The notes beneath the pieces were generated by a model. That model had not been told where the DNA came from, made no database searches, and saw only the letters and a program-made list of their open reading frames with translations. Below are positions 39,123 through 43,440 of a stretch of DNA of 47,325 bases, one piece after another. The stretch comes from Bacteroidetes bacterium QS_3_64_15. GTDB lineage: Bacteria > Bacteroidota > Rhodothermia > Rhodothermales > Salinibacteraceae. The stretch's first letter is position 1, and each line of letters starts with the position of its first letter. The translations under genes were made by a program, and so were the position numbers. The stretch spans positions 1-47,325 of the forward strand of contig PXTN01000021.1 in NCBI GenBank assembly GCA_003022565.1, given 5' to 3'.

Positions 39123-40262
39123 ATGCGCATTGGCCACCTCGACTTCGACGACCGGCCTCTCTTCCTCGCGCCCATGGAGGACGTGAGCGACCCACCGTTC
39201 CGCATCCTCTGCAAGCGATACGGGGCCGACATGATGTACACCGAGTTCATCTCCTCAGCCGGCCTCCTCCGCGAGCAGGCGCACGAGCACCAGAAGCTCG
39301 AGATTTTCGACAAGGAGCGCCCCATCGGCATTCAGGTGTGGGGCGGGGGGATCGACGAGGTCAAGAACGCCACCCCGATGGTCGACGCCGCCGGGCCGGA
39401 CGTGATCGACATCAACTTCGGCTGTCCGGTCCGAAAGATCGTGCAGAAGGACGGCGGGGCGGGCGTGCTCCGCAACCTCGACAAGATGAAGCGCATCGTG
39501 GCGGCGGTGATGGAGGAGGCCACCCGGCCGGTGACCGTCAAGATGCGCCTCGGGTGGGACGACGATTCGATCTACGCCGTGGAGGTGGCCCGCATGCTGG
39601 AAGAGATGGGCGTGGCGGCGCTCTCGGTCCACGCCCGCACCCGCGAGCAGCAGTACAAGGGCGACGCGCGTTGGGACTGGCTCCGCCGGATCAAGGAGGC
39701 GGGCGTCCGCGACATGCCTGTCATCGGCAATGGGGACGCCCACGACCCGGCGGCCATCGAGGCCATGTTCGAAGAGACAGGCGTGGACGCCGTCATGCTT
39801 GGACGCGGCGCGCTGGGCAACCCCTGGATTTTTGAGCGGGCGAAGGCCTACCTGGAGACCGGCACGCTGCCCCCGCCGCCCTCGTGGGAGGAGCGCGTGC
39901 AGGTGGTGGCCGAGCACCTGTCCATGAAGTGCGAGTGGCTGGGGGAGCGCACCGGCGTGCTGGAGATGCGCAAGAACTACAGCAGCTACTTCAAGGGCTT
40001 CCGCAACGCCTCTACGCTCCGGCACGAGCTTATGCAGCCGGAGACGAAGGCGGGGGTGCTGGAGGTGATGCTCAACTTCAAGCCCGACGCGCCCGACATT
40101 CAGGTCCCCTCGGCCAAGCTCCCCGAACAGACCGCCGACCCGGATGCAGTGGAGACGACGAAGCCGGACGTGCCCGAGGCCCTGCCGACGCCGGGGGGCG
40201 ACGGGGCAACCAAAGAGGTGGGGACGAAGAAGGCCGAGTTGCCTGCGTCGATGGCATCGTAA
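39123..40262 (+). CDS. tRNA-dihydrouridine synthase
   Basis: FMN enzyme that reduces uridine to dihydrouridine in tRNA D-loops. From the ATG at 39123 the protein is 379 residues: the barrel start APMEDVSDPPFRILCKRYG (residues 16-34), the catalytic cysteine C101 in DINFGCPVRKIVQKDGG, KMRLGWDDDS, VHARTREQQYKGDARWDWL and IGNGDAHDP are all as in DusB-type enzymes. The last 50 residues are a Pro/Asp-rich extension (QTADPDAVETTKPDVPE ... AELPASMAS) absent in E. coli. A diverged copy of exactly this extension occurs at 41257. Confidence 0.94.
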   Translation: MRIGHLDFDDRPLFLAPMEDVSDPPFRILCKRYGADMMYTEFISSAGLLREQAHEHQKLEIFDKERPIGIQVWGGGIDEVKNATPMVDAAGPDVIDINFGCPVRKIVQKDGGAGVLRNLDKMKRIVAAVMEEATRPVTVKMRLGWDDDSIYAVEVARMLEEMGVAALSVHARTREQQYKGDARWDWLRRIKEAGVRDMPVIGNGDAHDPAAIEAMFEETGVDAVMLGRGALGNPWIFERAKAYLETGTLPPPPSWEERVQVVAEHLSMKCEWLGERTGVLEMRKNYSSYFKGFRNASTLRHELMQPETKAGVLEVMLNFKPDAPDIQVPSAKLPEQTADPDAVETTKPDVPEALPTPGGDGATKEVGTKKAELPASMAS

Positions 40263-40333: not shown

Positions 40334-40822
40334 TCAGAGGGAGGAAAGCCGCTTCCGGACCCGTCGGACGAGCCCACCGGGACAAAACACCTCGATCTCA
40401 GGGTGCCCCGGCTCGTAGTCGTCGACGTTGTAGGTCGTGAGGTACGCGCAGTCCTGCTCGAGCGCCGCGACGAGGTGAGGCAGGTCCTTCCAGTCTGCAC
40501 GATCCGTGTGGGGAAGAAGGCCCTGTCGGGCAGGCGCGTCGACGATCGAGAGGGCCCGACCCACCAGCCGCTCAAAATCGCCGGTCGCCAATGGGAGCTT
40601 CGCCGCAAGATTGCGTCGGCATTCGTTGACGGCGAATTCGGACGTGATTCCCTCGATGAGCGTGATTTCCGAGAGCGTGAGCAGAACCTGACTTGCGCTG
40701 TGGTCGGAGGGAGACGCGGCGCCCGCAAAGAGCACGTCCGCGTCGAAATACACCCGGAGAGGCGATCCTGATTGAGCCCCGGACGCTCCCTGTCCGGTTC
40801 CGCCGTCCGTCTCGCTACTCAT
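40334..40822 (-). CDS. PIN-domain nuclease (probable toxin)
   Basis: A 162-residue PIN domain protein. Acidic active-site candidates are D27/D29 in VYFDADVLFAG, E62/E67 in TSEFAVNECRR, D113 in WKDLPHLVAA and D134/D135 in YNVDDYEPGH. PIN proteins are RNases; as here, they are usually paired with a DNA-binding antitoxin. The start overlaps the antitoxin gene's end by 4 bases (shared ATGA), typical of type II toxin-antitoxin operons, although the antitoxin is encoded first. The first 20 residues are unstructured. Confidence 0.85.
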   Translation of the reverse strand: MSSETDGGTGQGASGAQSGSPLRVYFDADVLFAGAASPSDHSASQVLLTLSEITLIEGITSEFAVNECRRNLAAKLPLATGDFERLVGRALSIVDAPARQGLLPHTDRADWKDLPHLVAALEQDCAYLTTYNVDDYEPGHPEIEVFCPGGLVRRVRKRLSSL

Positions 40823-41154
40823 GGGGGATCGCTCTCAGTCTCTTCCGCGCCGTCTCCCGAGCGTTCGCCGTCCGGAGGATCTCCGTAGTGCTCCCGGGTG
40901 AGCGCAGCCCGCTCGTCCCGAAGACGCGTCAAGAGTTCGTTCGTTGTACATCCCGCCTCCTCCCGGAGCCGTTCGATTTCCCGGGCCAGGCTGGGGACCA
41001 CCGGCTGCATCGGGGTGAGAACGAACGTTCCGTCCACGTCCACGAGGTGAAGAGCGTCTCCTTCGTCGAGGTCGTATTTGTCGCGGAGGGCCTTCGGGAG
41101 CGTGAGGACCCCCCGGCTCCGAAGCTGGACAGTACTACTGGCAGACCGGTCCAT
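40819..41154 (-). CDS. AbrB/SpoVT-type antitoxin
   Basis: A 111-residue protein with an N-terminal SpoVT-AbrB DNA-binding domain: VQLRSRGVLTLPKALRDKYDLDEGDALHLVDVDGTFVL fits the swapped-hairpin fold, with the typical LPKALRDKY stretch. The C-terminal half (IERLREEAGCTTNELLTRLRDERAALTREHYG, then an acidic tail) probably wraps the toxin. It is translationally coupled to the PIN gene by a 4-base overlap and probably represses their shared promoter. Confidence 0.85.
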   Translation of the reverse strand: MDRSASSTVQLRSRGVLTLPKALRDKYDLDEGDALHLVDVDGTFVLTPMQPVVPSLAREIERLREEAGCTTNELLTRLRDERAALTREHYGDPPDGERSGDGAEETESDPP

Positions 41155-41256
41155 CGAGGCTCATCATCGGGTTCAGGAGCGTGGTCGCTCTGCATTTCAG
41201 CATGGTCTGCATTTCGAAACGACTGGGACGGGTGGCGGTTTCGGGGCCTTCCGGTT

Positions 41257-41382
41257 CAGGCCGCTGATCTGGACGCCGTGGAGACGACGACCCCCAACGG
41301 GCCGGACGACGTGCCCCCGCCGGGCGGGGCGGGCGAGGAGGCCGGGACGAAAAAGGCCGAGCTTCCCGTGTCGATGACGTAG
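41257..41382 (+). pseudogene. Diverged duplicate of the dus 3' end
   Basis: This stretch encodes, in one frame, LDAVETTTP, then PGGAGEEAGTKKAELPVSMT and a stop. The dus C-terminal extension reads DAVETTKPD, then GGDGATKEVGTKKAELPASMAS (40128-40262). The DNA is clearly alike through to the stop codons (126 vs 135 bases). Upstream of 41250 no resemblance to dus remains. It is a gene tail without a gene, placed after the PIN/AbrB module. Confidence 0.82.
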
Positions 41383-41547: not shown

Positions 41548-41988
41548 ATGAGCGACGCCCCCCGCTACTGGACGCCCGCCTTCGTCGAGCGCTTCGTCGA
41601 CGCCCTCAACAATGACGAGGACTTTCAGGAGACCGCCGGATCCTTCTCCGAAACCATCGAGCTGCGGTGCCTCGACACGCCCGACGCCGAGGACGTCTCC
41701 GCCACGTATGCGTTCGAGGAGGGTCGGATCGTGGACGTGGATCTCTGGATCGACGAGGCGCCCTCCGAGCAGATGCGGGCGGAGGAGGTGGACACCGGCG
41801 CGATCATGGCCCGGGCCACGGCGCCCTACGACGTGTGGGTCCAGATGGACAAGGGCGAGATGGGGGCCGCCGAGGCGATCGCCTCCCCGGACTACCAGAT
41901 CGACGGCTCCATGATGCAGGTCATGTCAAACATGGGCGTCTTTCGGGGGATGATGTCCGTCGCGGCCGACGTGGAGAAGACGTACTGA
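41548..41988 (+). CDS. SCP2-like sterol-carrier-domain protein
   Basis: A 146-residue acidic soluble protein without signal peptide. The second half (ARATAPYDVWVQMDKGEMGAAEAIASPDYQIDGSMMQVMSNMGVFRGMMSVA) has the order of strands and the helix of the SCP2 lipid-binding fold, in which a hydrophobic pocket holds fatty acyl chains. This is a fold-level resemblance seen by eye, not a firm family match. It is followed by a repeat and then the zeta-toxin-like locus. The gene is about 160 bases after the duplicated dus tail. Confidence 0.6.
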   Translation: MSDAPRYWTPAFVERFVDALNNDEDFQETAGSFSETIELRCLDTPDAEDVSATYAFEEGRIVDVDLWIDEAPSEQMRAEEVDTGAIMARATAPYDVWVQMDKGEMGAAEAIASPDYQIDGSMMQVMSNMGVFRGMMSVAADVEKTY

Positions 41989-41989
41989 C

Positions 41990-42058
41990 TGATGCGTGAG
42001 GAGTGAAGAGTGACGCGTGAAGAGTGACGAGTGATGCGCGTGAGGCGGGTGCGACGTG
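41990..42058. repeat. GAGTGAAGAGTGACG tandem low-complexity repeat
   Basis: Repeats of GCGTGA(G/A)GAGTGA occur four to five times, imperfectly, directly after the SCP2-like gene's stop. Same family as the purine-rich stretches at 11559, 34838 and 38694. Confidence 0.65.
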
Positions 42059-42086
42059 AGGGAAAATAGGATTCGATGGAGCAACG

Positions 42087-42669
42087 ATGGCCTCGCCGAC
42101 TGTACTCATCGTGGGCGGCCCGAACGGAGCGGGCAAAACCACCCTCGCGGAGCCGTACGCCGAGCAGAAGGACCGGCCCTATCTCGCCGCCGATCGGATC
42201 GCGTCGGAGCTGAACCCGGAGGACCCGTACGCCGCGCGGGTCGAGGCCGGCCGGCAGTTTCTCCGACGGCTCAATGCGTTCATTGAGGAGCGGACCTCGT
42301 TCGTCGTCGAGTCGACGCTCGCCGGACGGAGTCTGGCCCGCTCCATCGACCGCATGAACGAGGCGGGATACATCACCCGTATCGCATTCGTCGTCCTCGA
42401 CTCGGCCGACCTGTGTGTGCGCCCGCGTGCAGGAGCGGGTGCGGAAGGGGGGGCACCACGTTCCGGACGCAGACGTTCGCCGCCGGTACACTCGGAGCAA
42501 GAAGAACTTCTGGACGTTGTATCGCCCGACGGCGGATCGATGGCATCTCCTCTTGAACGCAGAAGACGGATTCGTGGACGTGGCGACCGCAACGCCGACA
42601 GATACCTTTGTGCTAGACGACGACGCATTCGATGCCTTTCATCGAGACCTCTCGACCCGCCATGGCTAA
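42087..42669 (+). pseudogene. Zeta-toxin-like kinase, frameshifted
   Basis: Zeta toxins are P-loop kinases that phosphorylate UDP-sugar precursors or other targets. Frame 1 gives MASPTVLIVGGPNGAGKTTL (Walker A at residues 10-19), AADRIASELNP and FVVESTLAGRS. After SADLCV the reading continues one frame over: RVQERVRKGGHHVPDADVRRRY, RSKKNFWTLYRPTADRW, the conserved C-terminal part of this family. The shift falls at a TGTGTGTG run (42412-42419) and needs one base removed. Each half is undamaged otherwise, so it is a recent frameshift, a sequencing error, or a slippage switch. The last 8 bases overlap the next gene. Confidence 0.82.
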
Positions 42670-42883
42670 TAGTGTCGCTCGAAAGGAAATTCCGACGGAG
42701 GTGCTGAGGGAAATGATGGAGTTGAAGCGGATCGGTACTCGGTCGGCCCGAAAAGCGCAAGAAGAGAACCGTCGGCTCGGCATCCCGAACGCCTATTCCC
42801 GGAACGGCACCTTCTACTTCGAGCTGCCGGACGGGACGATCACGCAGGAGGATCCCTTCGTCGTGGAAAATGCCGATGAGTAG
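42662..42883 (+). CDS. Small partner of zeta-like kinase (possible antitoxin)
   Basis: A 73-residue protein starting at the ATG at 42662, overlapping the kinase stop by 8 bases, so translation is probably coupled. It begins basic (ANSVARKEIPTEVLREMMELKRIGTRSARKAQEENRRLG), then ends acidic (SRNGTFYFELPDGTITQEDPFVVENADE). No known domain is recognised. Position and size suggest an antitoxin or modulator, placed after rather than before the kinase gene; this is inference. Confidence 0.7.
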   Translation: MANSVARKEIPTEVLREMMELKRIGTRSARKAQEENRRLGIPNAYSRNGTFYFELPDGTITQEDPFVVENADE

Positions 42884-42942
42884 TCCGACGAGGGACATCA
42901 GGAACGGACAGTGCAAACTTCTGGCAACACAGCGCAAGACCT

Positions 42943-43440
42943 ATGAGCGACGACACGCCGGAGATCACCGTTACCCGCGGAAAACGACACAAGAGATCCG
43001 AACGCAGCAGGACGTCATCCTCGGCGACTCGTTCGCCGTCCTCGGGCCTAGGCTTGCCAGGATTGGGAACGGTCGTTTCGGGCGCAATCCGCAGCGCGCA
43101 CAACGTATGGCGGGCGGGACTTGGCGTCGTCGCGGTGGTCCGTGATGCCGGGACACAGGTGTTCGATGCCCTCGTTGAGGAGGGCAAATCGTGGGAGCAG
43201 GCCCAGCGCGAGCGCCGGCAGAGGACGAGCCGGCAGATGCGGCGGATGTCTGAAGAGGGCGACGCGGCGGACGCGATTGAGGAAAGGGTGCGCGACGAGG
43301 TGAACGAGGTCCTCCGGCGCATCGGGGGGCCCGATCGCGACCGAATCGATGCGCTGCGCGACCGAATCGACGCCCTCGATGTCAAGATTGCCCGTCTCCG
43401 GGAGGCAGTGTTTGAAGCGCAGCGAGAGCGGGAGCCCTAA
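42943..43440 (+). CDS. Phasin / polyester granule-associated protein-like
   Basis: 165 residues. A Ser/Arg-rich N-terminus (residues 12-36) is followed by a glycine-rich amphipathic helix region (LGTVVSGAIRSAHNVWRAGLGVVAVVRDAGTQVFDALVEEG) and a highly charged coiled coil (RRMSEEGDAADAIEERVRDEVNEVLRRIGGPDRDRIDALRDRIDAL). This layout, and the RIGGPDRDRIDALRDRIDALD pattern, resemble PhaI/PhaF-type phasins, which coat storage granules. It converges with the wax-ester synthase gene. Fit is moderate; other coiled-coil families are possible. Confidence 0.6.
   Translation: MSDDTPEITVTRGKRHKRSERSRTSSSATRSPSSGLGLPGLGTVVSGAIRSAHNVWRAGLGVVAVVRDAGTQVFDALVEEGKSWEQAQRERRQRTSRQMRRMSEEGDAADAIEERVRDEVNEVLRRIGGPDRDRIDALRDRIDALDVKIARLREAVFEAQREREP

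What the first reader, a model, noticed from the sequence alone, without database searches (positions are those of the whole stretch)
42087..42883. Zeta-toxin-like kinase broken at a TG run with an overlapping downstream partner
Two otherwise undamaged halves of a zeta-type kinase meet at TGTGTGTG, where slippage is plausible. If real in some cells only, this could be an on/off switch; a lethal toxin would be kept silent this way. The 73-residue protein overlapping its end is a candidate antitoxin with reversed gene order.
Basis: partly seen in the sequence, partly recalled or inferred. Interest (0 to 1): 0.6.

Follow-up and report, generated by a model that had tools for sequence, protein, structure and literature searches.

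The report
Broken zeta-like kinase with surviving partner
This is a two-gene, probably toxin-antitoxin, cassette that this bacterium acquired; its kinase gene has been knocked out of frame by one base while the small partner gene is intact, which looks like ordinary decay rather than an on/off switch, although the unnamed partner turns out to sit behind such kinases in many bacteria.

Summary
A zeta-like P-loop kinase lies in two frames that meet at TGTGTGTG (42412-42419), and a 73-aa ORF starts 8 nt before the kinase stop. The switch reading does not hold. In 79 of 83 homologous loci the halves are separated by exactly 9 nt; the window has 10. One extra base is not a whole TG unit, relatives lack the TG run, and such a run is expected by chance here (0.74). 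About eleven conserved neighbouring genes are unbroken. The module is an insertion: its flanking genes lie side by side in nine same-genus genomes. One of these has a more decayed kinase remnant elsewhere, with an intact partner. The partner reading gains support: 54 of 77 intact kinase loci, and 27 of 30 in a second set, have a homologous small ORF directly downstream, often overlapping the kinase stop by 4 or 8 nt; controls give 1-3. No Pfam, NCBIfam, PHROGs or PADLOC family names it. The kinase fold matches AvrRxo1-ORF1, polynucleotide kinase and zeta toxin. Best reading: a laterally acquired, toxin-first zeta-like module whose toxin has died and whose antitoxin remains. Toxicity and neutralisation are untested; an assembly error is not excluded.

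The parts
42087..42413 (+). N half of zeta-like P-loop kinase (Walker A, conserved Asp, ESTL motif)
42412..42419 (+). TGTGTGTG run at the frame break; the one-base excess against relatives lies within about 42414-42423
42415..42669 (+). C half of the kinase in the other frame (R..R..GGH.VP...RRR lid region and C-terminal strands and helix)
42414..42707 (+). out-of-frame continuation of the N-half frame (ORF 42087-42707, 206 aa), ending 45 nt inside the partner gene; codon-position GC not coding-like
42662..42883 (+). 73-aa partner, probable antitoxin (predicted long helix plus beta-hairpin), intact
41548..41988 (+). left flanking gene (SCP2-like, weak match), adjacent to the phasin-like gene in relatives without the module
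42943..43440 (+). right flanking gene (phasin-like)

Best explanation
A laterally acquired bicistronic cassette, kinase first and small partner second, was inserted between two conserved genes. Intact members most likely act as a type II toxin-antitoxin module: a zeta-like kinase phosphorylates a small molecule and stops growth, and the helix-hairpin partner, translationally coupled through the 4- or 8-nt overlap, binds and blocks it. In this genome a one-base frameshift has split the kinase and cut the lid and second half off the catalytic core, so no active kinase is expected; the partner stays intact. Shown: the break in the assembly, the insertion, the conserved pairing, the fold of a relative, decay of the kinase with an intact partner elsewhere. 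Inferred: toxicity, substrate, binding, coupling, and that the break is in the living cell and not in the assembly.
For: Frame: 79 of 83 loci have 9 nt between the anchors, window 10; one extra column in the alignment with six relatives. Insertion: flanking genes 53-255 nt apart without the module in nine same-genus genomes. Pairing: 54 of 77 and 27 of 30 kinase loci have the homologous downstream ORF, controls 1-3; start offset -3 in 16 and -7 in 10 loci; kinase and partner fused in L073, the tail matching the separate partner of L094, E 7e-22. Mobile contexts: same pair with 8-nt overlap on a Persephonella marina plasmid, a related pair with 4-nt overlap on Synechocystis pSYSG, 299 plasmid records with a relative of the kinase. 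Decay: G009 (same genus) has only a broken C-half remnant with differences spread over codon positions 24/28/33, while its partner shows 11/12/25 and is intact; broken kinases with intact partner ORF in L032, L052, L063, L105, kinase fragments after the partner in L029, L030, partners without a kinase in L025, L026, L028. Fold: pLDDT 96.6; AvrRxo1-ORF1 E 2e-8 and Z 15.2 over 183 residues, polynucleotide kinase Z 16.4, zeta 1gvn Z 14.9 over 175. AvrRxo1:Arc1 is a published zeta-superfamily pair with the antitoxin gene second, whose toxin gene is repeatedly inactivated with arc1 intact (PMC4938570).
Against: No toxicity or neutralisation data for this branch. The top Z scores are polynucleotide kinases, so the substrate could be a nucleic acid end. 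The partner is short, so six of six spared partners has a chance probability of about 0.15 if damage falls at random (own estimate from gene lengths). The partner clusters are single-linkage at E 1e-3; distant members may differ in role. An assembly error cannot be excluded without reads.
Confidence: 0.6

Rival explanations
1. Assembly or sequencing error: the living cell has one unbroken kinase gene and a working module.
For: Single base difference at a short repeat next to a GC-rich stretch; both halves otherwise undamaged with all invariant residues; draft genome of 131 contigs, 84% complete.
Against: The other genes of the window that have relatives in G003 and G011 are unbroken. The only other same-genus copy found is also decayed.
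Confidence: 0.25
2. Phase-variable switch: TG copy number varies between cells and turns the toxin on and off.
For: A (TG)4 run lies exactly at the break.
Against: Run length is at chance level; the run is absent in relatives; the offset is one base, not a whole unit; no (TG)4 or (CA)4 in 200 kb of two related genomes, so no sign of a repeat-based habit; known contingency repeats are usually longer (own knowledge).
Confidence: 0.05
3. Programmed ribosomal frameshifting joins the halves.
For: Both halves look selected as coding.
Against: No relative needs it: the halves are in one frame in nearly all loci. No conserved slip site.
Confidence: 0.03
4. The kinase is a metabolic or nucleic-acid-end kinase and the partner an accessory subunit, not a toxin and antitoxin.
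For: Bacterial polynucleotide kinase has the highest Z (16.4); AAA_33 scores above Zeta_toxin in L038.
Against: Patchy occurrence (strong kinase hits in 2 of 59 other relatives), plasmid carriage, small partner overlapping the gene end, partners left alone beside other TA-type genes, repeated loss of the kinase first.
Confidence: 0.15

Closest known systems
AvrRxo1:Arc1 (zeta-superfamily toxin-antitoxin pair; PMC4938570)
   Same: P-loop kinase of the zeta fold first, small antitoxin second; toxin gene repeatedly broken with antitoxin gene intact; its kinase is the best Foldseek match.
   Different: The kinase here is about 190 aa against 421 aa, about 20% identity; the partner is about 70 aa, predicted as one helix plus a hairpin, and no sequence or fold match to a solved partner chain was found. 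No secretion or host role is implied.
epsilon/zeta and PezAT type II toxin-antitoxin systems
   Same: Pfam Zeta_toxin domain above cut-off; fold match to 1gvn and 2p5t.
   Different: The antitoxin gene precedes the toxin gene there (own knowledge); here the partner follows, and no sequence likeness to epsilon or PezA was found.
Mycobacterium sp. MHSD3 zeta-like pair (PMC5728571)
   Same: 195-aa kinase with AAA_33 domain, shown toxic and relieved by its neighbour.
   Different: Its antitoxin is a 119-aa ParD-like protein encoded upstream.
Synechocystis pSYSG 'zeta toxin family protein' gene and its small downstream gene
   Same: Same kinase family (profile E 1e-68), same order, 4-nt overlap.
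   Different: Intact. PMC4963859 lists genes of this stretch as TA-related but not meeting its criteria (mapping by gene order is my inference).

Membership tests
Zeta toxin (Pfam PF06414) kinase superfamily | profile score over the curated cut-off | tested here: met
   N half 35.5 bits against 22.3; all 27 intact relatives match at E 0.001
Zeta toxin (Pfam PF06414) kinase superfamily | zeta kinase fold | tested here: met
   model of intact relative L038: 1gvn Z 14.9 over 175 of 187 residues; AvrRxo1-ORF1 Z 15.2 over 183; polynucleotide kinases tie or exceed in Z
Zeta toxin (Pfam PF06414) kinase superfamily | phosphorylates UDP-N-acetylglucosamine or another small molecule | not testable with these tools
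   needs biochemistry
epsilon/zeta TA system | epsilon- or PezA-type antitoxin gene upstream | tested here: not met
   upstream gene is a conserved chromosomal SCP2-like gene found next to phasin without the module; the partner lies downstream
type II toxin-antitoxin module (general) | two-gene unit of toxin and small protein partner conserved together | tested here: met
   54 of 77 and 27 of 30 loci
type II toxin-antitoxin module (general) | toxicity neutralised by the partner | not testable with these tools
   needs expression tests
AvrRxo1:Arc1 pair | Arc1-type antitoxin downstream of the kinase | tested here: inconclusive
   order is the same; partner profile and partner model found no solved Arc1 chain, but a missing match does not exclude kinship
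phase-variable (contingency) locus | repeat tract whose unit number sets the frame, longer than chance or conserved | tested here: not met
   chance level; one-base offset, not conserved
phase-variable (contingency) locus | mixed repeat lengths in reads | not testable with these tools
   no reads held

The most novel reading that the evidence does not exclude
The kinase and its unnamed downstream partner are a widespread, undescribed toxin-first family of zeta-like toxin-antitoxin modules, with a helix-hairpin antitoxin unlike epsilon, PezA, ParD-like or Arc1 antitoxins; the kinase family is present in about a fifth of the sampled genomes of the phylum (75 of 395) and repeatedly loses its toxin while the antitoxin persists.
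Probability: 0.45. Interest if true: 0.55.

Novelty: new variant of a known kind. Interest (0 to 1): 0.36.

Why it matters
The break itself is most likely ordinary decay. What matters is the partner: a small unnamed protein family conserved behind a common class of genes annotated only as 'zeta toxin family protein' or 'AAA family ATPase'. If it is the antitoxin, many orphan-looking zeta-like genes gain a partner, and naturally toxin-less copies such as this one offer a way to ask why antitoxins outlive toxins.

Tried and rejected
Viral contigs: a scan with the kinase alignment found no relative; phage records hold no partner match. PADLOC, PHROGs, NCBIfam and Pfam name no family for the partner. 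PDB search with the partner profile gave only designed helical proteins and chance matches, and the partner model has no fold match, so no fold-based function. Literature: no paper found on this pair; the library is not complete. No sigma-70-like promoter in 41900-43000, which says little for this phylum. The Synechocystis pSYSG kinase as a proven TA pair: rejected, since the pSYSG pair tested in PMC4963859 is a PIN-domain system.

Full report
What is there. The window (contig C21 of a 2.62-Mb draft genome in 131 contigs) carries, on the + strand, a zeta-like kinase in two frames: 42087-42413 and 42415-42669. The N half scores over the Pfam cut-offs for Zeta_toxin and AAA_33. Every residue that is invariant in 27 intact relatives (the GPNGAGK loop, the Asp, the E.T pair, the two Arg, GGH and the later Arg) is present in the two halves. 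GC by codon position is coding-like in each half in its own frame (0.68/0.49/0.86 and 0.68/0.46/0.74) and is lost when the C half is read in the N frame (0.69/0.65/0.48). The break is therefore recent or not real. A 73-residue ORF starts 8 nt before the kinase stop.

The break compared with relatives. A scan of genome contigs with the N half gave 80 loci from many phyla. Measured between fixed anchors, the halves are 9 nt apart in 79 of 83 loci and 10 in the window; of the three other exceptions only L063 is out of frame. A DNA alignment with six relatives shows one extra column in the window. The offset is one base, whereas TG slippage changes length by two. None of the relatives shown has the TG run, 0.74 such runs are expected by chance in the window, and 200 kb of two same-genus genomes hold none. 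In the same window, the genes that have counterparts in G003 and G011 are matched in single frames (about eleven real genes by my reading; the few split matches there are antisense or non-coding ORFs or second copies). This argues against a generally error-prone assembly, though a local error remains possible. In keeping with the rules I did not build or describe a mended reading frame; intact copies exist in relatives.

Where the module sits. The SCP2-like gene 41548-41988 and the phasin-like gene 42943-43440 are neighbours with gaps of 53-255 nt in nine same-genus genomes (G003-G011), with no module between them. In G001 and G012 an unrelated ORF occupies the same gap. So the module is an insertion at a tolerant site. 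Strong kinase and partner hits are rare among 59 other relatives: G045 and G056 have both, side by side; G009 has the partner, at another place.

The partner. It is not a chance ORF. Around 77 intact kinases, small ORFs ending 100-400 nt after the kinase stop fall into one homologous cluster in 54 loci; the same procedure on the antisense strand, further downstream and upstream gives clusters of at most 3 loci. A second set of 30 kinase loci, found in the window's phylum by a kinase profile alone, has the partner in 27. Starts overlap the kinase stop by 4 nt (16 loci) or 8 nt (10 loci). In L073 the kinase ends in a domain that matches the separate partner of L094 (65% over 54 residues, E 7e-22). 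No family library names the partner. The model of the window's partner is one long helix and a hairpin (pLDDT 85, low at both ends) without a match among solved structures. The aligned core reads AQ.ENRRLGIPNVY..NG..Y.E.P.G.

The kinase fold. The model of intact relative L038 (pLDDT 96.6) matches AvrRxo1-ORF1 (best E-value), bacterial polynucleotide kinase (best Z) and zeta toxin; the zeta-type chains are aligned over nearly the whole length. So it is a zeta-superfamily kinase; the substrate is open.

Decay elsewhere. G009, same genus, keeps a C-half remnant in two frames and an intact partner. Partner differences between G009 and the window fall mostly on third positions (11/12/25 in 50 codons), remnant differences are nearly even (24/28/33 in 61): this fits selection on the partner but not on the remnant. 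L032, L052 and L105 have in-frame stops and L063 a frame change plus stops, all with an intact partner-type ORF. L029 and L030 have kinase fragments after an intact partner. L025, L026 and L028 have the partner with no kinase in the flanking 1.5 kb; L028 lies beside a nucleotidyltransferase and its companion, L026 beside a RelE/ParE-like pair (these names are from my reading of the translations). Because the partner is short, sparing alone is weak evidence (about 0.15 for six of six by length, own estimate); the codon-position contrast and the lone partners are stronger.

Mechanism. Most likely, intact members are toxin-antitoxin modules with the toxin gene first. Precedent: AvrRxo1:Arc1, in which the antitoxin gene is second and the toxin gene is often inactivated with the antitoxin gene intact (PMC4938570). 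Coupling by overlap would make partner synthesis follow kinase synthesis. In the window the N-half frame runs on to 42707, 45 nt past the partner start, so coupling may be weakened; this is inference. The product of the broken gene lacks the lid and second half, so kinase activity is not expected.

Taxon. The 3,551,823-bp contig of G003 suggests to me Salinibacter ruber, hence a Salinibacter relative for the window; this rests on memory, not on a tool.

Verdict. Observation right; switch not supported; partner supported as a conserved companion and probable antitoxin. The local case is most likely ordinary decay; the partner family deserves a name and a test.

Noticed in passing
window 40334-40822 (-) and 40819-41154 (-): VapBC-like pair: PIN_3 protein and AbrB/MazE-type antitoxin, overlapping by 4 nt, 1 kb from the kinase module.
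   Followed up: partly
window 40119-40253 and 41248-41376: The 3' end of the tRNA-dihydrouridine-synthase-like gene is repeated in direct orientation (73-77%) on the far side of the VapBC-like pair, as if the pair had been inserted with a duplicated gene tail.
   Followed up: no
L124 and L123 (G001, G012), between the SCP2-like and phasin-like genes: A different ORF of about 250 codons fills the same gap that holds the kinase module in the window: an insertion-tolerant site.
   Followed up: no
window 41989-42050: Degenerate GTGATGCGTGA-type repeats between the SCP2-like gene and the kinase; similar repeats fill this gap in G008 and G009.
   Followed up: partly
L025, L026, L028: Intact partner genes without a detectable kinase, two of them beside other toxin-antitoxin-like genes.
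   Followed up: partly
L160 1188-2183 (Synechocystis pSYSG): A nucleotidyltransferase-family gene overlaps the start of the kinase gene, whose partner overlaps its end.
   Followed up: no
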